Shown here: piece by piece, positions 32,650 through 47,041 of the stretch | Position numbering within the stretch: position 1 is the stretch's first letter | Layout of the letters: each line of letters starts with the position of its first letter | Notes under the pieces: generated by a model | The model's input: the letters and a program-made list of their open reading frames with translations, nothing else | What the model was told of the DNA's origin: nothing | The model's database searches: none | Source of the DNA: Bacteroidota bacterium | Lineage (GTDB): Bacteria; Bacteroidota; Ignavibacteria; Kryptoniales; JAKASW01 | Direction: 5' to 3' | DNA: 64,000 bases | Assembly: GCA_021845665.1 (NCBI GenBank) | Contig: JAJZVO010000001.1 | Span: 1 to 64,000 of the forward strand | Position numbers and translations under genes: made by a program

Positions 32650-33390
32650 ATGCCGAAATGGTCATGGCGAGGTCGAGTGCTCAACGGCAAGAAAGTGGCT
32701 TCACACACTGAAGCAGTTCACACACCCGGCGGCAATATCGTACGAGAACTGGTTTTCGGGGCTAACGACGGCCTTGTGGCAGCGTTCGCAGTTGCCTCGG
32801 GCGTCAATGGTGCCGGGGTTCAGAGCAAAGTCATACTCATCGCGGGTCTGGCTGAACTCATCGGCGGAACAATCTCCATGGCCCTCGGCGCTTACCTGTC
32901 TACCAAATCCCAGATTGAGTACTATGGCGGTGAAATGGGACGGGAAGCGTATGAAGTCGAAAATTTCCCGGAAGTCGAAAGACAGGAAGTCAGAGAAATT
33001 TATGAGGCCAAAGGCTTCTCCGGAGATATACTTGATCGAATCATCGCACACATAACGTCCGACAAGAAAAGATGGATAACCATCATGATGCAGGAAGAAC
33101 TGGGGCTCAGCTTAGACCAAACCATCTCCCCTCTCAAGTCCGGGATCGCAACCGGCGGAGCTTACGCTTTCGGCGCCTTGATGCCTGTTTTGCCTTACCT
33201 CTTCATGCAACCCGGGCCGGGAATTGTCGCAAGCGCCGCCCTAACGTTGTCGGTACTTTTCGGAGTCGGCGCGGCTAAGACCATCGTCACCGGTAAGAAC
33301 GCTTGGCGAAGCGGTTTTGAAAGCATGACAATCGGCGGACTCGCCGCGGCTGCCACTTTCATTGCTGGCAAGATCTTCGCAAGAATGTAA
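32650..33390 (+). CDS. VIT1/CCC1-family transporter
   Basis: 246 residues. ATG preceded by GAGGAG. REL-VFGANDGLVAAFAVASGVNGAG is the hallmark first segment, and SMALGAYLSTKSQIEYYGGEM follows, the point where the family's metal-binding domain begins. That domain is short here (VENFPEVERQEVREIYEAKGFSGDILDRIIAHITSDKKRW). Three further membrane segments end the protein. Relatives move Fe2+ or Mn2+, usually against H+. Here it probably exports or stores divalent metal at the inner membrane; the iron-rich cytochrome block nearby makes iron plausible but this is not shown. Convergent with upp, 4 bases apart. Confidence 0.82.
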   Translation: MPKWSWRGRVLNGKKVASHTEAVHTPGGNIVRELVFGANDGLVAAFAVASGVNGAGVQSKVILIAGLAELIGGTISMALGAYLSTKSQIEYYGGEMGREAYEVENFPEVERQEVREIYEAKGFSGDILDRIIAHITSDKKRWITIMMQEELGLSLDQTISPLKSGIATGGAYAFGALMPVLPYLFMQPGPGIVASAALTLSVLFGVGAAKTIVTGKNAWRSGFESMTIGGLAAAATFIAGKIFARM

Positions 33391-34920: not shown

Positions 34921-35084
34921 ATCTTCTTGATATCTTTCCGGGTTTCTGATTTCGAGATTAAAAATAGCCTAACTCTTTGCAATAATGCAAAAGAATACTT
35001 CTTTCAATTACCGCTACCTCGACTACCGCAGCACCGGCAGAACGGATTCCGAAACAGCCACAGTTGCTGCCTGCCGGTCATAGA

Positions 35085-35122
35085 AAAGCCGGCGACGCCA
35101 GGGAAATGGCGTCGCCGGCTTT
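35085..35122 (-). terminator. Strong terminator hairpin after the cytochrome operon
   Basis: A perfect 16-base inverted repeat, AAAGCCGGCGACGCCA (35085-35100) with its complement at 35107-35122 and a 6-base loop, lies 60 bases past the last cytochrome gene. On the minus strand the stem ends in CTTTTCT, a short U-tract. It is the only strong hairpin between this operon and the next gene, so it is the likely 3' end of the transcript. It could be partly bidirectional. Confidence 0.8.
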
Positions 35123-35182: not shown

Positions 35183-35872
35183 TTACCACGCAGACACTGA
35201 TTTCCCGTATAGAACAAGTTTCCCGGTGACATGCATGCTGTTATCTACTATCACCCCATCCGGCCCAATCATCGGTGAGTGACAGTAGTAACAAGTCTGA
35301 AGTGTTATGCCTTTCCCTCTGTGAGTCGCATCGTCGGGAGGAATTCCATGACAGCTGCCGCATGAGTCCTGACTTGAATTGACGACGTTCCAGGTCGGAG
35401 AGAAATTGTTGCCTCCCTTGAAGTTACCGTGACAATATGTGTTTGAGCATTGGAGTGTTTTCGCATTAAATGTGGGCTGCGGTGTCACGGTGGCGAGAGT
35501 GCTGTCATAGAAGCGTGTGCCCGGTGTGTTCGTCTCGGTCATCGCGACTCCTGAGAACGTCACCAGCGTAGCCGACGAGATGCCGCCGGGATGGACTCCG
35601 GGGCCTATCGAGGTCGGCACAATATGACATGTGGAGCATTCAACCTGCGAAGCGAAATCGCTTCCGTTCAAATGCACCTGGTGCGCACCTACAAACGGAT
35701 CGGAAGTGCTCGTGTCGCCCGCTGCATCCGGCGGGGGGGCTGGATTCATTATGCTTCCGTGGCACGAGCTGCAATTTGCCGTGGCAAGCACGCTGGTATT
35801 CTGTAATTTGCTGCACGACGCGAGCGTCATACCGGCAGCAATTATGAGTGCAATTCCATATAGTGTTTTCAT
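35183..35872 (-). CDS. Pentaheme c-type cytochrome lipoprotein with a CX4CH site
   Basis: About 229 residues. Three in-frame ATGs follow GGGGAG; the third (35872) has the best spacing. The lipobox GMTLASC places the Cys near residue 19. Haem sites are CSSCH, CSTCH, CSNTYCH (a CX4CH site), CGSCH and CYYCH, five in all. The sequence resembles the CxxxxCH/CxxCH cytochrome group found in Geobacter-type metal reducers. As a lipoprotein coded last in the operon after a beta-barrel, it is a good candidate for the surface-exposed terminal reductase or capping cytochrome. Its ATGs overlap the stop of the 14-heme gene. Confidence 0.82.
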   Translation of the reverse strand: MKTLYGIALIIAAGMTLASCSKLQNTSVLATANCSSCHGSIMNPAPPPDAAGDTSTSDPFVGAHQVHLNGSDFASQVECSTCHIVPTSIGPGVHPGGISSATLVTFSGVAMTETNTPGTRFYDSTLATVTPQPTFNAKTLQCSNTYCHGNFKGGNNFSPTWNVVNSSQDSCGSCHGIPPDDATHRGKGITLQTCYYCHSPMIGPDGVIVDNSMHVTGKLVLYGKSVSAW

Positions 35873-35874
35873 CA

Positions 35875-37137
35875 TCATCTCCCCGGATTGCTGCCGTGAC
35901 AATAACCGCAGAAACCGATCCCCGGTTGTCCTCCCGGATGTGCGTTAGGATCCGTATGACACACATAGCAAACCGCGCCGGGATCGGTGTGCCAGTTTCC
36001 GTCGACATCATGCATGTACATCGGTGGATGTGTCCTCGGGTTATCTCCCTGAACTCCGTCAGGATCGCTATGGCATGTAACGCATACAGGATCGCCTCCT
36101 TGTATGTCATGACAGGCTGCGCAGCTCTCGATATCTCTCCTCGCGTAAATGGCGTGCCTTCCCCCGCCACTTCCCACACCGTTTGTGACGAAGTCGCCGC
36201 CGAAATGCCAGATCGGCTCTATCATGGCACCGTTTGCTTCCGAGTTGTGGCATTTCACACAGAAGGTACGCTCGTCATGACAGGTGTAGCAACTGCTTTC
36301 CCGCCCACTGGCCATTATTCCGTGAGTATAACGAAAATCCGGCGGGTGAACCTTCTGAGCGGTAGTGGTCTTATTGCTCGGCAACGGAGAAAGAGACGGT
36401 GTGAAGGGCACATACGGCTGACCGGGTGTCAGATCGACCGCGAGATTTGCCGCGTCGTGGCACTCCTGACAGCTCGCCTCCGTGTGACATGACTTGCAGC
36501 TGTTCTGTGGGCCAGACATTCCGACAAGCTGCTGATGGGTTTTCATGAAATTCGGCTGCTTGTGCGATTCAGGTACAAGGTTCACGAGATTTTTGTGACA
36601 TTCCTCGCAGGCCCCCGGTGCAGCCGTAATCGGATGGTCGACTTTCTTCGCGGTGAAATTCGTTTCGCCCTGGCCGTGGCAAGTCATACACACTTCCATC
36701 GTTGGAAGCCCCTTGTTCGGCGCATTCTCCGCATAGGTCACCTTCGAAATCCCCTGGTGGCATGTCTGGCATTTCAACTTGAGAGTATCTGCATGCTGCA
36801 CATGTGAAAACTGTACCGGGCTCGGTATCAGGACGAGCTTCCTGTAAGTCGTCGTATCTGCCGATGTGTGGCAGAATGTACATTTCGTCGACGACTGATC
36901 ATGGCACATGAAGCATGTCGACATCGACGGGAGGAGATCTTGCTTTATGCCGGTACTTGTTTTGACGTTAGTATGGCAGTCTGTACATGATGCCCCGACG
37001 TCGTTGATATGCTTGCTGTGGGAAAACTTTATTAGAGAAGAATTGTCGACTGGCGGAGCCTTCTTGCTCGCGAACAGAGTCGAGATGGACAGAAGCGCTG
37101 CGATACCGACAATTCCGAAGATTCTGGTCTTTTTCAT
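35875..37137 (-). CDS. 14-heme c-type cytochrome
   Basis: About 420 residues from the ATG at 37137 (GGAGG 10 bases ahead). It has a Sec signal peptide (MKKTRIFGIVGIAALLSISTLFAS). Fourteen CXXCH motifs are spread through the protein: CTDCH, CFMCH, CTFCH, CQTCH, CMTCH, CEECH, CKSCH, CQECH, CYTCH, CVKCH, CAACH, CVTCH, CYVCH and CGYCH. Extra His residues (FSHSKH, FSHVQH) act as distal ligands as in cytochrome c3-like domains. It probably works in the periplasm or inside the neighbouring barrel, moving electrons outward. Confidence 0.88.
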   Translation of the reverse strand: MKKTRIFGIVGIAALLSISTLFASKKAPPVDNSSLIKFSHSKHINDVGASCTDCHTNVKTSTGIKQDLLPSMSTCFMCHDQSSTKCTFCHTSADTTTYRKLVLIPSPVQFSHVQHADTLKLKCQTCHQGISKVTYAENAPNKGLPTMEVCMTCHGQGETNFTAKKVDHPITAAPGACEECHKNLVNLVPESHKQPNFMKTHQQLVGMSGPQNSCKSCHTEASCQECHDAANLAVDLTPGQPYVPFTPSLSPLPSNKTTTAQKVHPPDFRYTHGIMASGRESSCYTCHDERTFCVKCHNSEANGAMIEPIWHFGGDFVTNGVGSGGGRHAIYARRDIESCAACHDIQGGDPVCVTCHSDPDGVQGDNPRTHPPMYMHDVDGNWHTDPGAVCYVCHTDPNAHPGGQPGIGFCGYCHGSNPGR

Positions 37138-37148
37138 TTGCGCCTCCG

Positions 37149-38627
37149 TCAATTGCCGCTGAAATTCTTAAAGAAATAATAATTCACCTGCAGATATCCC
37201 CTTAAATCATTCTTGAACACCGGATCCTGATAATATTGTCCCTGGAGGGTTATCGCCAGAAGTTTGATCGGGCGATAAGTCACACCAAGCGCACCATTAT
37301 ATAGACGGTTTGCAGACGTGAGCTGCTGGAGGACCTTGTAGTCAGTCGCTGAAGCGGACGCTATCAAAACGAACCTCTGGTTCATGAACGGATATATTAT
37401 CTGCGCGTTCACTCCGTTGAGATTCCCCGCGAAACCGTCATTGTGTGAAAAACTCAATGTAAAAAGATAGATGTTGGTGCCAATGGTGAATTGATTGGAA
37501 TTGGCACCCGTGTAAAAGATCCTGTCGTAAGAGCCGAATGCACTGATGTCTTGCGTGAACAGATAACTCGCGCCCAGGTCCAGTTCGTCGGTTCCACTGT
37601 GGTCGAACACCGAAAAGATCGAGTTGTAAGGAAGATTCGACGTACGGTGATAGTAGCCTACATTTGCAGAGAAAGAGGTGAACGGAGAGTAACGGAACGA
37701 TACTATCGTTCTGTCAATGTCATATAAGTTGAGATCGTAATCGAGCCGAAAGTACCCCGACAATCTATCGGTATAGTAAGAAAGATCTCCTGAGACAAAT
37801 TGGTTTGCAATTGCATCCGGATTGATCAGGATGCTGTCCTGAGCCCCGGGAGTATTATACGATTCGGACAACCGGTATGTGTAGTAGCTCGGCGGCCTGA
37901 AGTTCTTGTCGACATAAGCACCTCCGATTCGAAAGTTCTCGACTGGAGAATAATAAGCTTCGCCGCCATACAACATGTTGCCCCTAAGATCGGTATTCAG
38001 TTCGATCCTTTCATTCATCGGGGGCAGTGCTCCTCCAAAGGCAAAGAGCGATAACTTATCGTCGAACAGTCTCGCCCTTGCGCTGAGTCCGTCGAAAGAC
38101 GAGACTCCGACCCTCGAGAATACCGGCTGCCTCCCAAGCTTTAGGTCGAAGATGTGCGCAATGTTCCTCGCTTCGAAATAGAGGTTCGCCGCGCGAAGCA
38201 GCGGATCGTTCGGGAGCTGTGTCAGAAAATCGTTCGTAGCGAGGAGATAAGTGTGCAGCTGATAATTCCCTGAGCCGAAATTCAACTGCATCGCTTCAAA
38301 TCCACGCAGGCTAAGTTTGGCATTGTTGGAGGTGTCATACTGCTGATAAGAATAAAATGTAGTCAGGAACCTTCCACTTACCATCTGTGCATGCGCATTC
38401 TCTCCACCGAACGGAATCATGACAATCAGGAATAGGATTGCGGGTAATCCCGAGAATAACGACTGAATAAGAAACCGGATACGGGATGCCCCGTCGGGCA
38501 CCCCGGACTTGGGCCAGACTCTTCTTAACGAGCGGGCTTTTCCTTCTGTATTTTGAAATCTGCAGCCGGTGTGCGATAGTCTCCGCACACTGCATCTTTC
38601 TGACGCTATTCCCGGGATACCTTTCAC
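37149..38627 (-). CDS. Outer-membrane beta-barrel protein of the cytochrome operon
   Basis: Up to 492 residues. A signal peptide-like segment (FLIQSLFSGLPAILFLIVMIPFGG ending in AHAQ) is preceded by about 50 residues that look non-native, so the true start is uncertain; the GTG at 38627 has AGGAAGG ahead, though spacing is long. The mature part is all amphipathic beta-strand with alternating aromatics (YSYQQYDT, YFEARNIAHIFDLKLGRQPVF, LYGGEAYYSPVENFRIGGAYVDK) and ends in an aromatic-rich strand before SGN. No haem motif. Placed between 14-heme and tetraheme cytochrome genes, it may be the porin of a porin-cytochrome conduit. Confidence 0.75.
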   Translation of the reverse strand: MKGIPGIASERCSVRRLSHTGCRFQNTEGKARSLRRVWPKSGVPDGASRIRFLIQSLFSGLPAILFLIVMIPFGGENAHAQMVSGRFLTTFYSYQQYDTSNNAKLSLRGFEAMQLNFGSGNYQLHTYLLATNDFLTQLPNDPLLRAANLYFEARNIAHIFDLKLGRQPVFSRVGVSSFDGLSARARLFDDKLSLFAFGGALPPMNERIELNTDLRGNMLYGGEAYYSPVENFRIGGAYVDKNFRPPSYYTYRLSESYNTPGAQDSILINPDAIANQFVSGDLSYYTDRLSGYFRLDYDLNLYDIDRTIVSFRYSPFTSFSANVGYYHRTSNLPYNSIFSVFDHSGTDELDLGASYLFTQDISAFGSYDRIFYTGANSNQFTIGTNIYLFTLSFSHNDGFAGNLNGVNAQIIYPFMNQRFVLIASASATDYKVLQQLTSANRLYNGALGVTYRPIKLLAITLQGQYYQDPVFKNDLRGYLQVNYYFFKNFSGN

Positions 38628-38682
38628 AACCCACCTTCCTTTATGAACATAAGAATGAACATTCCTGAAAACGAAACAGGAC

Positions 38683-39234
38683 TTACTGCTGAGGAACCGG
38701 ATGAGCTATCTTGGCCCACATTGTCTTGAAGTCGAATTCCTTAAAGGTCGGGCTCTTCTTGTTGTGACATGTCTCGCAGAATTTCTGCGCGCTGCCGTCC
38801 TTAACCGAAAGTAGCGTGAGACCATGGGCAACGGCTTCTTTCTCGTTCTTCATGATGTCCATTTTCATGTAGTCCTTGCCGGGACCGTGGCAGGTTTCGC
38901 ACTGCACACCGTCTTCTTTGCTGAATCTCGGACCAAGCTGCGATGCCGGAGCATCATAGGCAGTAACGTGGCACTGCAGGCATTCCGGCGAATCCGCAGG
39001 GCTTCCCTTAATGCCCTTCGCTTCGGCAATCTTCTTGGCCGCAGGAGTCAATAGGGTTTTATACGCCTGAGAGTGCTTGCTCGCTTCCCATTTCTGGAAT
39101 TGCTCGCCGCTCTTAGGGGTTCTGTGACACATGGCGCATACCTTAACTCCGACGTATTGATGACTGGGTGCAGCAGCCAACGAAACGGCGGAAGTAAGGG
39201 CGAGCGCCATAACCACCAGCGTTAGTGTTTTCAT
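38683..39234 (-). CDS. Tetraheme periplasmic c-type cytochrome (c554-like)
   Basis: 183 residues with signal peptide (MKTLTLVVMALALTSAVSLAAA). Four CXXCH sites: CAMCH, CLQCH, CETCH and CETCH. The opening YVGVKVCAMCHRTPKSGEQFQKWEASKHSQAYKTL is the signature of the cytochrome c554-like family. GGAGG lies 8 bases before the ATG. It is a likely soluble shuttle between the membrane-bound cytochrome and the outer-membrane part of the chain. A gap of 55 bases separates it from the barrel gene. Confidence 0.87.
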   Translation of the reverse strand: MKTLTLVVMALALTSAVSLAAAPSHQYVGVKVCAMCHRTPKSGEQFQKWEASKHSQAYKTLLTPAAKKIAEAKGIKGSPADSPECLQCHVTAYDAPASQLGPRFSKEDGVQCETCHGPGKDYMKMDIMKNEKEAVAHGLTLLSVKDGSAQKFCETCHNKKSPTFKEFDFKTMWAKIAHPVPQQ

Positions 39235-39255
39235 TTAGATACCTCCATTTTGATT

Positions 39256-39267
39256 TGGTATATACCA
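39256..39267. promoter_or_regulatory. 12-base palindrome ahead of the tetraheme gene
   Basis: TGGTATATACCA is a perfect palindrome 22 bases before the start of the tetraheme cytochrome gene. It sits in the only wider gap (96 bases) between the DksA-like gene and the cytochrome genes. It could be an operator for a dimeric regulator or part of an internal promoter. No protein is assigned. Confidence 0.3.
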
Positions 39268-39330
39268 GGTAACGTAGCAGTCGTCGTGACCTGAACCGGC
39301 CGCGCGACCGTGCATCTTCCTAATATCAAC

Positions 39331-39705
39331 TCAGTTTTTCTTGGCGCACGCATCGCAGAACGTTCTCGTCAGCCCTTTCTCAAGTTCCTTCTTACCTATG
39401 AATGCGGCGCAGCTCTCGCAGTACCCGTAAGTCCCGGTCTTTAACCTTTGCAGGGCCAGCTCAAGTTCCTTAAACTCCGTCTCCATCTTCCTCGCGTACT
39501 CGCATCGGTAGTCGGGCTCAACTTCGCATCGCTTGTGCTGAAGGTCGCACATACTGCATATGTACACCTCCCCGCTTTCAAGATCCACAAGATCATCCGG
39601 CCTCATATACATCATTTGGAGGACTATACTGATCCTGTTTCTTATCAAACTGCCAAAATGTTCCATCATCTCTTTGTCAACCGTCTCTCTCTTTATCCTT
39701 TTCAT
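39331..39705 (-). CDS. DksA/TraR-type protein with two four-cysteine clusters
   Basis: About 124 residues from the ATG at 39705 (GGAG ahead). The C-terminal zinc finger is TYGYCESCAAFIGKKELEKGL-x-FCDAC, with Cys96, Cys99, Cys117 and Cys120. A second set, Cys50, Cys53, Cys60 and Cys68 (CSMCDLQHKRC then RC), lies in what would be the coiled region and is absent from ordinary DksA. A helix of about 25 residues links the two. Its start overlaps the 901-residue cytochrome gene by 29 bases. I infer an RNA-polymerase-binding or redox-sensing role; the extra cluster is the odd feature. Confidence 0.72.
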   Translation of the reverse strand: MKRIKRETVDKEMMEHFGSLIRNRISIVLQMMYMRPDDLVDLESGEVYICSMCDLQHKRCEVEPDYRCEYARKMETEFKELELALQRLKTGTYGYCESCAAFIGKKELEKGLTRTFCDACAKKN

Positions 39706-42382
39706 CGTCTCCACTCCCACTTGGATTTCCTCCGTTCTCGATAATGATGTCTTCGCTCTTCTCTTCTTTGCTCAGCATCCTCTCAAGTTCGAGCGGGTGC
39801 TCATCTTCCATCTCGTCCTCCGTAATCGTCCCGAACAACCATGAAAGATTCATGGGATAGACATCCGGATTGAAGATAGTGAAGTACATATGCCAGACCA
39901 GAATTGCCAGCGTGGCAAGAATCGCTTCGTAATAATGAACGAGCGTGGCCACGTCAATTCCGAGCAGCGTAAATCTTCCGACCGTGAAGGTGTTGAACCA
40001 GAGCAGGAGACCTGTCAAAACCATTACCGTCGTTCCCCATATCAATGCCCAGTATTCGGCTTTCTCGATGTAACTGAACCGGTCGAACCTCGGCCGCTTG
40101 TCTGAAATCCCCAGGTAGTACTTCACCGCGTCTTTAACGTCCGCTGCATCTTTCAGCTTCGGAAGCATGTCCTTAATGAACTGCCTTCCCCGCTCAGTGA
40201 AGATCACATAGTAAACATGGTACAACGCCGTCACGATCATGATTACCGCGCTGATGCGGTGGATCAGTCCACGCAGCTCAAAAACCCTCTCGCCTCCGCC
40301 TCCAATTTCACGGATCAATTTCACCCACCAGGAATCGGGGAATTTCAACATGAAACCGGTAAGGACTAGAAGCGTGAAGCTGACAAGAAGCCCCCAGTGC
40401 TGCAGCCGCTCGGCCTTCGTCATCCTTACATAAAGTTTCTTTCCTGCGTGCCTCGGCTCCGCTGCAGGATCTCTCCTTAGTTTCAGTTTCGACTTCGACT
40501 TCTTCACGAAATCGAAAACGTTGTGTATCAGCATCATGCCGATAATACCCAGGATCAGGACCGCATAAATCTGAGAGATCCAGAATAACAACGGCTGATT
40601 GGTGGGGGTGGGAACAACGTGCACCGGGAACGACGCAAATCTTGCATCGGCACCCGGGTGACATTTCCCGCATGTCTTCGCAATGTTCGCCACGTTGATG
40701 GGCGAGTTCGGGTTCGACGACGGCAGGATTTCATGTGCACCGTGGCAACTCGCGCAGTTAGCCACCGTCGTCATCCCGCCCTGCTTCGCCAGCCCATGGT
40801 AGCTGTCCAGGTAGCTGCCCACCGCATTCTTCGGAAGCCCGTAACGCTGAGTCAGCCGGACGGATGCATGACAGTGCGAACACACTTGCACGATATTGTT
40901 ACTCGATACGGTCGAATGCGGATTGCTCGGGGCGAGTATCTGATGATCGCCGTGGCAATCGGTACAAACCGGCGCGCCGTTGTTTCCGCTTTCCAAAGCC
41001 TGACCGTGAATCCCCGCCAAATACTTCTTTTCAATGTTGGCATGACATCCGCTTTGGCCGCACGTGCTCGGGATGTTGTTCCTGAATATCCTCGATTTCG
41101 GGTTGCCTGCAGGAAGCATGCTGTGCGCACCGTGGCAATCGCTGCACGTCGCGGCTTTAAGGTTGCCCTTCTCAAGCGCAACAAGATGAACGCTGTATTT
41201 GATACTCTCGAGAAATGCCCTCGACACACCCACCATCTTGAAAACTTCCTTGTTGCCGAGGTGGCAGCTGAGGCAGATTTTCGGCTCGTTCTGCCTGCTG
41301 ACGGGCGACTCTGGGCTACTGATCGAGGAAATACTGTGCTCCTTGTGGCAGTCAGTACAAACCGGCGCAACGCTCAATCCCTCCTTAAAAGCCATCCCGT
41401 GAGACGATTTCAGATAGTGCGATTCAACATCGGCGTGACATTTTCCGCAGGTGGCAACTATGTTGGCCCGATTCACAGGGGAAGTGGGATCGCTCGCAGG
41501 CTTTATCGTGTGTGAACCGTGGCAATCAACACAGGTCGCCCCCTTTCCCGTCTTCTTCAACGATTCAGCGTGAATGCTGTGAGCGTACGCCTCGACGAGC
41601 GATGCAAGCGGCTTGCCATCGTCCGATTTTACTCCGTCAAAAAGTCTCTTGTTGGTATGGCACTTATAACAAGCATTCTGTGAAATAGCCTGCTTCGATA
41701 CCGTAGCCTCGTGCGCAGTATGGCAGGTAACGCACGTCAGCTTCCCTTCATCGAACACTTTCTTATGAATGCTGTGGTTAATATCTGTCGCTACCCCATT
41801 GTGGCATTGCGCACAAACCGAGTCGATCTGCGTACCCGGCATCGACTGCACCGATACTACATTGTGAGCCTTCTTATGACAGGTTTCGCAGGTGAACTGT
41901 TTCTGATTTATTTTTTCTTTCGCGTGTGGAGAAGTCAGAAAAGCCTTCTCTGCCGGGTGACACGACAGGCATTTCTCGTCGACAACGATATTCTTTGCAG
42001 GCTGAATATCATGGGTACCGTGACAGGTCCAGCACTTCAGAGACGAGTGCGCCATGTGGTAGCTGGCACCCTTCGGAGCATTAAGTGTCACACTGTGGCA
42101 TTGATCGCAGTCTACATTCGGTGAGGTCTGCTTGCGAGGGACATCATCTGCGCTGAATCCCTGGTGACAGTCCGTGCAAGCTAACCCCGCGGCTCCATGA
42201 ACCGACGAATCGAAAACGGCAGGGTTGACGTAAAGACTGATCGTCTTACCCGCCTTTTGCATCGTCATCGTCGAATCGGAATGACAGGCGAGACAGTCGT
42301 CGTTCGAACCTGCAAAAGAAGGCCGGGAAAGAAGTGCACTAAAAACAATAATGGTAAAGAGAGAGAGTAACTTAATTTTCAT
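39677..42382 (-). CDS. 19-heme c-type cytochrome fused to b-type membrane cytochrome
   Basis: 901 residues. Signal peptide (MKIKLLSLFTIIVFSALLSRPSFAG), then about 600 residues with 18 CXXCH sites and one CX4CH site (CGQSGCH), in tandem units of the form cysteine-haem then DCHGxH. The last 300 residues hold about five membrane helices with histidines in ERLQHWGLLVSF, LIHRISAVIMIVTALYHVYY and LVHYYEAILATLAILVWHMYF, as in formate-dehydrogenase-gamma or hydrogenase b-type subunits. The tail is acidic. Geobacter CbcL has this c-plus-b layout and oxidises menaquinol. This protein likely starts the operon's electron path. Start overlaps the DksA-like gene upstream (ATGA). Confidence 0.87.
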   Translation of the reverse strand: MKIKLLSLFTIIVFSALLSRPSFAGSNDDCLACHSDSTMTMQKAGKTISLYVNPAVFDSSVHGAAGLACTDCHQGFSADDVPRKQTSPNVDCDQCHSVTLNAPKGASYHMAHSSLKCWTCHGTHDIQPAKNIVVDEKCLSCHPAEKAFLTSPHAKEKINQKQFTCETCHKKAHNVVSVQSMPGTQIDSVCAQCHNGVATDINHSIHKKVFDEGKLTCVTCHTAHEATVSKQAISQNACYKCHTNKRLFDGVKSDDGKPLASLVEAYAHSIHAESLKKTGKGATCVDCHGSHTIKPASDPTSPVNRANIVATCGKCHADVESHYLKSSHGMAFKEGLSVAPVCTDCHKEHSISSISSPESPVSRQNEPKICLSCHLGNKEVFKMVGVSRAFLESIKYSVHLVALEKGNLKAATCSDCHGAHSMLPAGNPKSRIFRNNIPSTCGQSGCHANIEKKYLAGIHGQALESGNNGAPVCTDCHGDHQILAPSNPHSTVSSNNIVQVCSHCHASVRLTQRYGLPKNAVGSYLDSYHGLAKQGGMTTVANCASCHGAHEILPSSNPNSPINVANIAKTCGKCHPGADARFASFPVHVVPTPTNQPLLFWISQIYAVLILGIIGMMLIHNVFDFVKKSKSKLKLRRDPAAEPRHAGKKLYVRMTKAERLQHWGLLVSFTLLVLTGFMLKFPDSWWVKLIREIGGGGERVFELRGLIHRISAVIMIVTALYHVYYVIFTERGRQFIKDMLPKLKDAADVKDAVKYYLGISDKRPRFDRFSYIEKAEYWALIWGTTVMVLTGLLLWFNTFTVGRFTLLGIDVATLVHYYEAILATLAILVWHMYFTIFNPDVYPMNLSWLFGTITEDEMEDEHPLELERMLSKEEKSEDIIIENGGNPSGSGDDEKDKERDG

Positions 42383-42687
42383 CTGATGGTATCACTCTTT
42401 TCGCGCATCGCCGTTTGACATGACGGACATAGTCTGGCAGTGACATTTGCCTCAAGGATCTCGGAGGGAATCTCGTGCCTGCATATGACGCATTGACCGT
42501 AAACACCTTTCTCTATTCGATGGAGGGCAAAAGCGATCTCATTGAGGTCGGGACAATCGAATCTTGACGCCTCCTGGAGAACTCGCTCCTTCGCCCCTTC
42601 GACAGATACTCCATGCTTCGTCAACAGAATGTCGCGAAGTTTCTGAACTACAAGCTTTTCGAACTTGGAAAGGTCTTCTGATTTCAT
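42379..42687 (-). CDS. DksA/TraR-type zinc-finger protein, first gene of the cytochrome operon
   Basis: 102 residues. The zinc finger has Cys66, Cys69, Cys87 and Cys90 (YGQCVICRHEIPSEIL then RLCPSC) with the Glu/Ile-rich spacing of the DksA C-terminal finger. A coiled N-terminal part (KFEKLVVQKLRDILL) is shorter than in full DksA, so it resembles TraR-like small members; Cys45 is an additional residue. The stop overlaps the cytochrome start (ATGA), implying coupled translation. DksA-type proteins bind the RNA polymerase secondary channel. Here the gene may tune expression of the operon; this is inferred. No ribosome-binding site is seen ahead of the ATG. Confidence 0.75.
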   Translation of the reverse strand: MKSEDLSKFEKLVVQKLRDILLTKHGVSVEGAKERVLQEASRFDCPDLNEIAFALHRIEKGVYGQCVICRHEIPSEILEANVTARLCPSCQTAMREKSDTIR

Positions 42688-43862: not shown

Positions 43863-45731
43863 ATGTTCAGCACATTAAGAGCAAAAGTCGCGGCGGGCTT
43901 CACCGTCCTTGTGATAATAAATATCATCGTCAGCGTCTGGTCGATATACAATTTCGACCAGCTCACGCAGGCTATCACAAGGATGATCAAACAGAACTAC
44001 CAGAATGTTATTGCAACCCAGAACATGTTAATGGACCTTGAGCGCGACAACAGCGCTCAGCTTGTCATGCTCAATGGGTACGTCGACCTTGGGTATAAGC
44101 AATTCCAGGACAACCATAACGACTTTTTCGTCTGGTACCAGCAAGCGGTGAACTCGAACGTCTCACGCCGCGGCATGCAGATACTGGACAATATCAAGAA
44201 CAATTACGCACAGTTCGTCGCGGCAACCGATTCCCTCCGCATCGTCCTGATGACCGACGGCCATGCCCATGCACAGGATTTCCACTACAGGAATGTCCTT
44301 CCGCTCTCAAACCAGATCAAGGATGGCTGCTTCCAGCTCCTGGATATGAATCATAACGCGATGGTCGCAACCGATACGAAAGCGAGCGACATTTCCAATC
44401 AGGCCACCGTTGCGGTTCTAGGTGCGGCTCTTCTTGCTATTGTCTTGAGCATCGTAGCAAGCTGGCAATTTTCACAATACATCCTGGAGCCGGCTGAGAA
44501 GCTCACGGATACCGTTCGAAAACTCGGGAGAGGCTACCTCGACGTTCGGGCTACCGTCAACTCCAACGACGAAATTGGAGAACTCGCCCGGGAATTCAAC
44601 CGGATGGCTGAACGGCTGAAGAAGTATGAGGAAATTAACATCGAGAAACTTATCTACGAAAAGAGGAAATCCGAGGCCATCGTCGGCACTATCTCCGACC
44701 CGATCGTGGTCGCGGATAGGGACGGCAAAATTGTATTAATGAACCAGCTTGCCGAGAATATTTTCGACGTGTCCGAAGAGGCATCTATTGGACAAATGTT
44801 CCAGGACGTCATCAAGAACGCCGAGCTCAACAAATACGTGGCGCGTTATCTCAACGGCGAAAGTGCCGTAAATATTCCACCATATTTCGAACTTCGATTC
44901 AACGGCGAGGACCGATACTTCAGGATAAAACTAAACTCATCAAAGGACGGATCCGGCAAGGTATCGGGAGTAATTCTCATTCTTCAGGACGTCACCCAGT
45001 TCAAAGAACTTGACAAAATGAAATCCGAATTCATGGCGAGAGTCTCGCACGAATTCCGGACTCCGCTGACTTCAATTAACATGACACTCGATATATTAAA
45101 GGACGCCCATATCGGCCACGTCAACAAGAGACAGCATGAACTCCTCGTCGCTGCGAAACAAGATGCCGAAAGATTGACAAAACTTGTGCGGGAATTGCTT
45201 GAGTTATCCCGTCTCGAATCCGGAAAGATTCAACTCAAAGAAGACAAGATAGACACAAAGTCGCTAATCGAATTCTCGGTTCAGCCCGTCCTCCTTCAGT
45301 TCACCGATAAAAACGTTAAGCTTGAAATAAACACCGACGATACCATCCCGGAATTCGTGGCTGATTTCCAGCAATTATCGTGGGTAATCTCCAATCTCGT
45401 GACAAACGCGCTCAGGTTTACCGATCCGGGCGGCCGCGTTACGGTTGACGCCACCACCGACGGCGAAGACCTGATCGTCGCCGTAAGCGATACAGGCTGC
45501 GGAATCGAACCTGCCGAAATGGAGAAAATTTTCGACAAGTTCGTCCAGGTCCAAGATTCCGCCAATCCTTCCCCCGGTTCCGTCGGACTCGGCCTTTCAA
45601 TATCGAAAGAGATTGTCGAGTTATATGGCGGCAGGATTTGGGTCGACAGCCGGATCGGATCAGGAAGCGTGTTCACCTTCTCAATCCCTATTAGAAAACG
45701 TATTTCCCACGAACAAGCAATCTCCGCATGA
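43863..45731 (+). CDS. Membrane sensor histidine kinase with HAMP and PAS domains
   Basis: 622 residues. Helix 1 at about 12-32, a four-helix-bundle sensor domain to about 180, helix 2 at about 185-208, then HAMP (208-260, EPAEKLTDTVRKLGRGYLDV). The PAS domain (about 268-380) contains PIVVADRDGKIVLMNQLAENIFDVSEEA. The HisKA domain holds ARVSHEFRTPLTSI with His396, and the ATPase domain has NLVTNALRFTDPGG, VSDTGCGIEPAEMEKIFDKFVQV and VGLGLSISKEIVELYGG. Its stop overlaps the regulator's start by 4 bases. The likely partner is the NtrC-family regulator. Signal unknown. Confidence 0.9.
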   Translation: MFSTLRAKVAAGFTVLVIINIIVSVWSIYNFDQLTQAITRMIKQNYQNVIATQNMLMDLERDNSAQLVMLNGYVDLGYKQFQDNHNDFFVWYQQAVNSNVSRRGMQILDNIKNNYAQFVAATDSLRIVLMTDGHAHAQDFHYRNVLPLSNQIKDGCFQLLDMNHNAMVATDTKASDISNQATVAVLGAALLAIVLSIVASWQFSQYILEPAEKLTDTVRKLGRGYLDVRATVNSNDEIGELAREFNRMAERLKKYEEINIEKLIYEKRKSEAIVGTISDPIVVADRDGKIVLMNQLAENIFDVSEEASIGQMFQDVIKNAELNKYVARYLNGESAVNIPPYFELRFNGEDRYFRIKLNSSKDGSGKVSGVILILQDVTQFKELDKMKSEFMARVSHEFRTPLTSINMTLDILKDAHIGHVNKRQHELLVAAKQDAERLTKLVRELLELSRLESGKIQLKEDKIDTKSLIEFSVQPVLLQFTDKNVKLEINTDDTIPEFVADFQQLSWVISNLVTNALRFTDPGGRVTVDATTDGEDLIVAVSDTGCGIEPAEMEKIFDKFVQVQDSANPSPGSVGLGLSISKEIVELYGGRIWVDSRIGSGSVFTFSIPIRKRISHEQAISA

Positions 45732-47041
45732 AAGCTAATGTCCTTCTCGTAGACGATGAACAAAACATCCTCCGTACCATGACAATCTGTCTCGAGTCGA
45801 TCGGACTGGAGGTGACCGCCACGCCTAAGCCCGAAGAGGCACTCAAATTCGCTTCCGAGAAACACTTTGATATCGCCTTCTTCGACTTGAAGATGTATCC
45901 CGTAGGTGGTCTGCAACTTCTCGCAAACATCAAAAGGTTTTCGCCAGACACGATCGTGGTCATCGTGACCGCTCACGGTTCGGTAGACACAGCCGTGCAG
46001 GCCATCAAACAGGGCGCTTACGACTACCTTCAGAAGCCGTTCGATTTCCAGGAACTCCAGCATTTCGCCCAGAAAGTTTACGACCATTTTCTCCTCCAGA
46101 AGCAATTGAAGGACCTGAAAGAGGAGCTCCATAAATACCAGGCGGCGGAAGAAATAATAACCTCCGACAATCAGGTCCTTTCGCTGCTTAATCTTGCGAG
46201 AGAAGTTGCCGATACCAACATCAGCGTTCTCATCGAGGGAGAAAGCGGAACAGGGAAAGAACTCATTGCGAAGTACATACACAAATCGAGCTCACGCGTT
46301 GATGCGCCGTTCGTCACCGTCAACTGCGCGGCTCTATCCGAAAGCCTCCTAGAAAGTGAACTCTTCGGCCATGTTAAAGGTGCTTTCACCGGAGCGGTCA
46401 AAGACAGGCAGGGAAGATTCGAAATGGCGGACAGAGGCACGGTCTTCCTCGACGAAATAACCGAGATCCCAACCACGACACAGGCCAAACTACTCCGTTT
46501 CCTCCAGAGCCGCGAGTTCGAACGCGTTGGCGATTCTCAGACAATGAAGGTTGATGTCAGATTCATCGCAGCCACCAACCGCGACCTCAAGGCGGCACTT
46601 TCAGGCGGATCGTTCAGAGACGACCTTTACTACAGAATCAACGGCGTGACCGTCAAGCTCCCCCCCCTCCGGGAACGCCCCGATGACATCCCTCTTCTCA
46701 TCAAGCACTTTATCCAAAAATTCGGCGGAGACAATCCGCCCGAGATTGAACCCGATGCATTCGGCATACTCACAAATTATCGATGGCCGGGCAATATCCG
46801 GCAGCTCGAAAACGTCGTCGAGCGTTCCGTCCTCCTGGCTCACGGAAGAAAGATAGAAGTGCATCATCTCCCCGAAGAAATCAGGCAATTGGAAGGAAAG
46901 CGGCTGGTCTCGCTCGAAGAACTTGAGAAGGAACACATAGCCAGAGTGATCCAGCAAACCGCTACCGTCGATGAGGCTTCCCATATCCTGGGCATAGATC
47001 CGGCTACCCTCTGGCGGAAGCGAAAAAAATACGACCTCTAA
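45728..47041 (+). CDS. Sigma-54-dependent response regulator (NtrC family)
   Basis: 437 residues. The receiver has the phospho-acceptor Asp53 (FFDLKMYP) and Lys in YLQKPFDFQEL. The AAA+ domain (about 145-375) has Walker A GESGTGKE near 170, the sigma-54 contact loop GAFTGA near 218, a Walker B region GTVFLDEITEIP and NYRWPGNIRQLENVVERSV. The C-terminal Fis-type HTH reads EEASHILGIDPATLWRKRKKYDL-like (VDEASHILGIDPATL). GAFTGA is intact, so it should activate sigma-54 promoters. The nearest potential target is the divergent cytochrome operon side, but I found no convincing sigma-54 site. Confidence 0.93.
   Translation: MKANVLLVDDEQNILRTMTICLESIGLEVTATPKPEEALKFASEKHFDIAFFDLKMYPVGGLQLLANIKRFSPDTIVVIVTAHGSVDTAVQAIKQGAYDYLQKPFDFQELQHFAQKVYDHFLLQKQLKDLKEELHKYQAAEEIITSDNQVLSLLNLAREVADTNISVLIEGESGTGKELIAKYIHKSSSRVDAPFVTVNCAALSESLLESELFGHVKGAFTGAVKDRQGRFEMADRGTVFLDEITEIPTTTQAKLLRFLQSREFERVGDSQTMKVDVRFIAATNRDLKAALSGGSFRDDLYYRINGVTVKLPPLRERPDDIPLLIKHFIQKFGGDNPPEIEPDAFGILTNYRWPGNIRQLENVVERSVLLAHGRKIEVHHLPEEIRQLEGKRLVSLEELEKEHIARVIQQTATVDEASHILGIDPATLWRKRKKYDL

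What the first reader, a model, noticed from the sequence alone, without database searches (positions are those of the whole stretch)
35183..42687. Self-contained multiheme conduit operon from quinone pool to cell surface
Seven co-directional genes hold a c/b-type fusion cytochrome (19 c-haem sites), a tetraheme shuttle, an outer-membrane barrel, a 14-haem cytochrome and a pentaheme lipoprotein, plus two zinc-finger genes. By motif count 42 c-haem sites are coded in 7.5 kb. The gene order (membrane enzyme, shuttle, barrel, large cytochrome, lipoprotein) follows the physical path of electrons outwards. It looks like an extracellular electron-transfer chain in a lineage where few are characterised.
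Basis: partly seen in the sequence, partly recalled or inferred. Interest (0 to 1): 0.85.

Follow-up and report, generated by a model that had tools for sequence, protein, structure and literature searches.

The report
Porin-cytochrome electron-export gene cluster
Seven adjacent genes in a Kryptonia-like bacterium appear to build a chain of haem proteins that carries respiratory electrons from the inner membrane to the cell surface; it is a new example of an already described 'porin-cytochrome' system that turns out to be widespread in this bacterial class.

Summary
In detail: at 35183-42687 (minus strand) seven close-packed genes encode 42 c-haem sites (19+4+14+5), an outer-membrane barrel and two DksA-like zinc-finger proteins, ending in a strong intrinsic terminator at 35119-35083. 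The electron-conduit reading is well supported. The barrel has no transporter-family match and models as a ~22-strand barrel. The 14-haem protein has 12 conserved non-motif histidines, so it looks like a wire rather than an enzyme. The lipobox cysteine of the last cytochrome is conserved. The order tetrahaem-barrel-14-haem-lipoprotein holds across Kryptonia, Melioribacteraceae and Ignavibacteria: 34-38 of 40 loci per element, and 185 of 293 class genomes carry the barrel. The same module is in the cultured Fe(III) reducer Melioribacter roseus and matches Ignavibacterium album IALB_1840-1837, described in 2014 as a porin-cytochrome (Pcc) cluster. The inner-membrane protein has CbcL/MtrH/MtoC architecture, also a published family. 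So the type is not new. What seems little described is its class-wide single-copy conservation, and the exchange of the quinone-side enzyme (b561-linked multihaems, or Rieske/cytochrome b with a NapC-type cytochrome) in front of a constant outer-membrane module. Direction and substrate remain unproven.

The parts
42379..42687 (-). zf1: DksA/TraR-like C4 zinc-finger protein, 102 aa, first gene of the operon
   Evidence: weak DksA/YteA-type profile matches below family cut-offs; C4 motif visible; conserved at 48-94% identity in 9 same-genus loci; overlaps the next gene by 4 bp
39677..42382 (-). CbcL/MtrH/MtoC-like quinone:cytochrome enzyme: signal peptide, 19 c-haem sites, C-terminal b561/FdnI-type membrane domain, 901 aa
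   Evidence: haem count; PF01292 1.4e-21 at 653-839; formate dehydrogenase gamma 8.1e-15; 1kqf_C 5.3e-6; five hydrophobic segments after 605 and invariant H722, H816
39331..39705 (-). zf2: DksA-like protein with two four-cysteine sites (start 39705 or 39720)
   Evidence: NF033459 2e-8, below cut-off; all eight cysteines kept in congeners
38683..39234 (-). periplasmic tetrahaem cytochrome (c554 family), 183 aa, likely shuttle or docking cytochrome
   Evidence: PF13435 2e-19; within three genes upstream of the barrel in 34 of 40 loci
37149..38627 (-). outer-membrane beta-barrel, Pcc-type porin, about 22 strands
   Evidence: AlphaFold model pLDDT 79, 22 barrel strands; no Pfam, NCBIfam or PDB sequence match; single copy in the genome; found in 185 of 293 class genomes
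35875..37137 (-). 14-haem cytochrome, trans-barrel wire candidate (start at ATG 37137; longest frame from 37152)
   Evidence: 14 CXXCH; 12 conserved non-motif histidines, 33 of 38 homologues exactly 14-haem; adjacent to the barrel in 37 of 40 loci; N-terminus similar to c7-type domains, 3ov0 4.2e-28
35183..35872 (-). outer-membrane multihaem lipoprotein (4 CXXCH + 1 CX4CH), presumed outer cytochrome
   Evidence: lipobox LASC, Cys30 conserved in at least 90% of 39 homologues; CxxxxCH/CxxCH domain TIGR01904 8.6e-15
35083..35122 (-). intrinsic terminator of the operon
   Evidence: 17-bp stem, 6-nt loop, U-rich tail, -34.2 kcal/mol, z = -7.9, 0 of 200 shuffles
43863..47041 (+). divergent sensor histidine kinase and sigma-54 response regulator, possible regulators (role not shown)
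   Evidence: Pfam domains; divergent ~620-aa kinase-sized neighbour in several congeners; no sigma-54 promoter above chance

Best explanation
A porin-cytochrome (Pcc-type) extracellular electron-transfer operon. Inferred path: menaquinol is oxidised by the b561-type membrane domain of the 901-aa protein; [quoted passage not shown] Shown here: gene content, haem counts, barrel prediction, bis-histidine pattern, lipobox, operon packing, terminator, class-wide conserved order, presence in M. roseus. Inferred: complex formation, topology, direction and acceptor.
For: Haem counts. b561/FdnI domain. Barrel model. Conserved order tetrahaem-barrel-14-haem-lipoprotein. Barrel and 14-haem co-occur: 45 and 44 of 61 relatives, differing only in one genome whose barrel hit is a contig-edge fragment. 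Twelve conserved non-motif histidines in the 14-haem protein. Module present in G231, whose chromosome length of 3,300,414 bp equals Melioribacter roseus P3M-2, a reported Fe(III) reducer. I. album IALB_1837-1840, described as Pcc, has a 400-aa 14-haem cytochrome beside the porin (PMC4245776). An anode-enriched Bacteroidetes carries a 7-gene cluster of six multihaems plus a barrel (PMC8258643). The same genome has two 9-haem cytochromes with type IX secretion tails.
Against: No biochemistry or transcript data. AlphaFold gives only the N-terminal ~160 residues of the 14-haem protein with confidence, and a complex could not be modelled. Direct homology to Geobacter OmbB/OmaB was not tested. Gene order mirroring electron flow is not evidence in itself.
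Confidence: 0.85

Rival explanations
1. Same conduit, run inwards: electrons enter from Fe(II), a partner cell or a cathode and reduce the quinone pool, as in Mto/Pio systems.
For: CbcL/MtrH/MtoC relatives occur in both reducers and oxidisers and show no distinguishing sequence feature (PMC6295460). Nothing in the operon fixes direction.
Against: M. roseus with the same module reduces Fe(III) (PMC3534657). In several families the upstream enzyme is a Rieske/cytochrome b type, usually a quinol oxidase.
Confidence: 0.1
2. A periplasmic respiratory reductase with a porin that admits a soluble acceptor; one of the cytochromes is the catalytic reductase.
For: The tetrahaem belongs to the c554 family. 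Two of 14 haems in the large cytochrome lack a conserved second histidine.
Against: Twelve of 14 haems have conserved candidate distal histidines. No nitrite, octahaem or other reductase family matches at its cut-off. The lipoprotein cytochrome and strict adjacency to the barrel fit a wire better. The barrel matches no substrate porin family.
Confidence: 0.05

Closest known systems
Pcc cluster of Ignavibacterium album, IALB_1837-1840 (Shi et al. 2014, PMC4245776)
   Same: Same gene order and types: outer cytochrome with an atypical haem motif, 400-aa 14-haem cytochrome, porin, periplasmic cytochrome. A named Ignavibacterium relative (L151) shows 425-aa barrel, 400-aa 14-haem, lipoprotein.
   Different: Here a fused 19-haem/b561 quinone enzyme and two zinc-finger genes stand in the same operon. 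Proteins of Kryptonia-like and Ignavibacterium-like lineages are only ~30-40% identical.
Melioribacter roseus P3M-2 cluster (reported pcc porin, PMC6137239)
   Same: Tetrahaem, barrel, 14-haem, multihaem lipoprotein in the same order (L180).
   Different: Upstream a 16-haem frame and a separate b-type piece, lipoprotein with more haems (8 CXXCH + 1 CX4CH), no zinc-finger genes seen.
Geobacter OmbB-OmaB-OmcB porin-cytochrome complex
   Same: Architecture: porin of 18-22 strands, periplasmic multihaem, outer-membrane multihaem lipoprotein.
   Different: I. album proteins fall outside the Geobacter groups (PMC4245776); 14 haems instead of 8 in the inner cytochrome; homology not tested here.
CbcL/MtrH/MtoC quinol oxidases (PMC6295460)
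   Same: Multihaem N-terminus and FdnI-type b domain; 19 haems lies in the published range of 3-23.
   Different: 901 aa and 19 haems against 9 haems in G. sulfurreducens CbcL; about five predicted helices after the haem region.
Shewanella MtrCAB
   Same: Works alike: cytochrome threaded through a barrel.
   Different: No MtrB/PioB match in the genome; 14-haem protein far below the DmsE/MtrA cut-off.

Membership tests
Pcc (porin-cytochrome) gene cluster, Ignavibacteria type | porin-like outer-membrane barrel of 18-22 strands | tested here: met
   22 barrel strands in the model, pLDDT 79
Pcc (porin-cytochrome) gene cluster, Ignavibacteria type | adjacent periplasmic c-cytochrome with 5-14 haems | tested here: met
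   14 CXXCH, signal-type N-terminus; next gene in 37 of 40 loci
Pcc (porin-cytochrome) gene cluster, Ignavibacteria type | outer-membrane c-cytochrome (lipoprotein) | tested here: met
   conserved lipobox cysteine, 5 haem sites incl. one CX4CH; outward orientation not shown
Pcc (porin-cytochrome) gene cluster, Ignavibacteria type | same module in a cultured reference strain | tested here: met
   G231 = M. roseus by exact chromosome length; profile hits 2e-171 and 5.8e-162
Geobacter OmbB/OmaB/OmcB | sequence homology to OmbB/OmaB | not tested
   no Geobacter sequences could be fetched; I. album cluster was found with these templates at BLAST E < 0.01 (PMC4245776)
Pcc (any) | electron transfer across the outer membrane | not testable with these tools
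   needs proteoliposomes or mutants
MtrCAB / DmsE | MtrB_PioB barrel (PF11854) | tested here: not met
   no match in the whole genome nor for the barrel
MtrCAB / DmsE | MtrA/DmsE decahaem and OmcA/MtrC families | tested here: not met
   14-haem protein 14.7 bits against 192.2 (DmsE) and 37 against 209.3 (OmcA/MtrC)
CbcL/MtrH/MtoC | N-terminal c-haems fused to FdnI/HydC-type b domain | tested here: met
   19 haem sites; PF01292 1.4e-21
CbcL/MtrH/MtoC | six transmembrane helices | tested here: inconclusive
   hydropathy shows five segments after residue 605 plus the signal peptide; published homologues have four to six
DksA/TraR | curated family score | tested here: not met
   zf1 and zf2 match several DksA-type models but below cut-offs; described as DksA-like only

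The most novel reading that the evidence does not exclude
The Ignavibacteria/Kryptonia barrel plus 14-haem pair is an independently evolved trans-outer-membrane wire, unrelated to MtrAB and to Geobacter OmbB/OmaB, that serves as one fixed, single-copy exit for the whole class while the quinone-side enzymes (b561-linked multihaems, NapC-type, Rieske/cytochrome b) are swapped or stacked in front of it.
Probability: 0.3. Interest if true: 0.6.

Novelty: new member of a known kind. Interest (0 to 1): 0.4.

Why it matters
It shows that a porin-cytochrome conduit known from one or two Ignavibacteria is a class-wide, single-copy trait (185 of 293 genomes) and reaches the Kryptonia, for which the papers searched report no electron export. 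The constant outer module with exchangeable quinone-side enzymes suggests cells tune the redox potential of electron export by changing the inner enzyme only. Cultured carriers exist, so this is testable.

Tried and rejected
MtrCAB/DmsE membership: rejected. Transport porin families: no sequence match; PDB fold search gave only generic barrels (OprD/Occ, AlgE, PapC/FimD, TM about 0.3-0.5), none discriminating. The viral-structure library was uninformative. No plasmid carries the barrel. A sigma-54 promoter was sought because a sigma-54 regulator lies upstream: matches equal chance. Promoter scan only modestly above chance and not used. The 14-haem AlphaFold model is too poor beyond the first ~160 residues for a fold search. 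Sequences of OmbB/OmaB/OmcB and of the anode Bacteroidetes_1 cluster could not be fetched, so those links rest on the papers.

Full report
Observation. The seven genes exist as described on the minus strand. A motif count gives 18 CXXCH + 1 CX4CH, 4, 14, and 4 CXXCH + 1 CX4CH: 42 sites. Gene overlaps and short gaps, plus a perfect 17-bp hairpin with a U-rich tail just after the last gene (z = -7.9), point to one operon. No transcript data exist to prove it.

Where it is. The window lies in a 4.6-Mb draft genome of the phylum Bacteroidota (phylum inferred from named relatives).

Proteins. The 901-aa protein joins a 19-haem periplasmic part to a b561/FdnI-type membrane domain (PF01292 1.4e-21; formate dehydrogenase gamma). 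The 183-aa protein is a c554-family tetrahaem. The barrel has no Pfam, NCBIfam or PDB sequence match, and AlphaFold on 41 homologues gives 22 barrel strands (pLDDT 79). The 14-haem protein begins with c7-like units (3ov0). Twelve further histidines are conserved, ten of them invariant; the last two haems and two of these histidines are lost together in the shorter homologues. This is the pattern of a bis-histidine electron wire. The last protein has a conserved lipobox cysteine and a Geobacter-type CxxxxCH/CxxCH domain. The two zinc-finger proteins resemble DksA without reaching family cut-offs. zf2 keeps eight cysteines in all congeners found, so a regulatory or redox-sensing role is possible but untested.

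Conservation. The barrel occurs once in all 12 same-genus genomes and in 45 of 61 relatives. It was found in 42 of 296 genomes drawn across the phylum, all of them in this class, and with a profile in 185 of 293 class genomes. The 14-haem protein follows the barrel in 37 of 40 loci, the lipoprotein is within three genes downstream in 38, and the tetrahaem is within three genes upstream in 34. Among 73 named loci with a called 14-haem gene, 71 have the barrel directly before it. The stated refutation (homologues never collinear) therefore fails.

Variable front end. Upstream of this constant module the quinone-side genes differ: a fused 19-haem/b561 protein (this genus); separate 16-19-haem and b561 proteins (Melioribacteraceae and others); or a Rieske protein, cytochrome b, NapC-type hexahaem and 11-haem cytochrome. 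Some congeners stack several: b561, 9-haem + b561, and an 18-haem NapC-type protein.

Known relatives. Shi et al. 2014 (PMC4245776) described IALB_1837-1840 of I. album as a Pcc cluster: porin 1839, 400-aa 14-haem cytochrome 1838, outer cytochrome 1837 with an atypical haem motif, periplasmic cytochrome 1840. Order, size and haem number match the module here. A pcc porin has been reported in M. roseus (PMC6137239). The held genome G231 has exactly the published M. roseus chromosome length (3,300,414 bp) and carries the module. M. roseus can use Fe(III) (PMC3534657). Cytochromes of the 901-aa protein's architecture were surveyed as CbcL/MtrH/MtoC with 3-23 haems, including Ignavibacteriae (PMC6295460). 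An anode-enriched Bacteroidetes has a 7-gene cluster of six multihaems and one barrel with best hits in Bacteroidetes/Ignavibacteriae, called previously uncharacterised (PMC8258643). It may be the same type, but this could not be checked.

Verdict. It is a new member of a known kind. The parts not seen in the papers searched are the class-wide single-copy conservation, the presence in Kryptonia, and the exchange of quinone-side enzymes. Direction, acceptor and complex formation are inferred.

Noticed in passing
G000:C13, locus L177 4916-6949 and 7223-9325 (same genome, other contig): Two tandem 9-haem cytochromes with MtrC/MtrF-like domains and C-terminal type IX secretion sorting domains: multihaem cytochromes apparently exported to the surface by T9SS. 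They could be terminal partners of the conduit.
   Followed up: partly
window 39331-39720: DksA-like protein with two four-cysteine sites; all eight cysteines conserved in the genus and always encoded just before the tetrahaem gene. Possible redox-sensing regulator.
   Followed up: partly
L051 3021-7632 and similar in L047, L050, L054: Congeners insert extra quinone-side genes (b561; 9-haem + b561; NapC-type 18-haem) between the fusion cytochrome and the outer-membrane module.
   Followed up: partly
L057 11866-16362 and similar loci: Rieske protein, cytochrome b, NapC-type hexahaem and 11-haem cytochrome directly upstream of the conduit, a bc-like complex with multihaem partners.
   Followed up: partly
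L178 4014-6696 (G000:C51): 4Fe-4S ferredoxin followed by an NrfD membrane protein fused to a 6-haem cytochrome.
   Followed up: no
window 43863-47041: Divergent sensor kinase and sigma-54 response regulator beside the operon, with a kinase-sized divergent neighbour in several congeners; no sigma-54 promoter above chance.
   Followed up: partly
window 32650-33390: VIT1-family (iron/manganese transporter) gene near the operon; a similar protein lies near the operon in congener L055.
   Followed up: no
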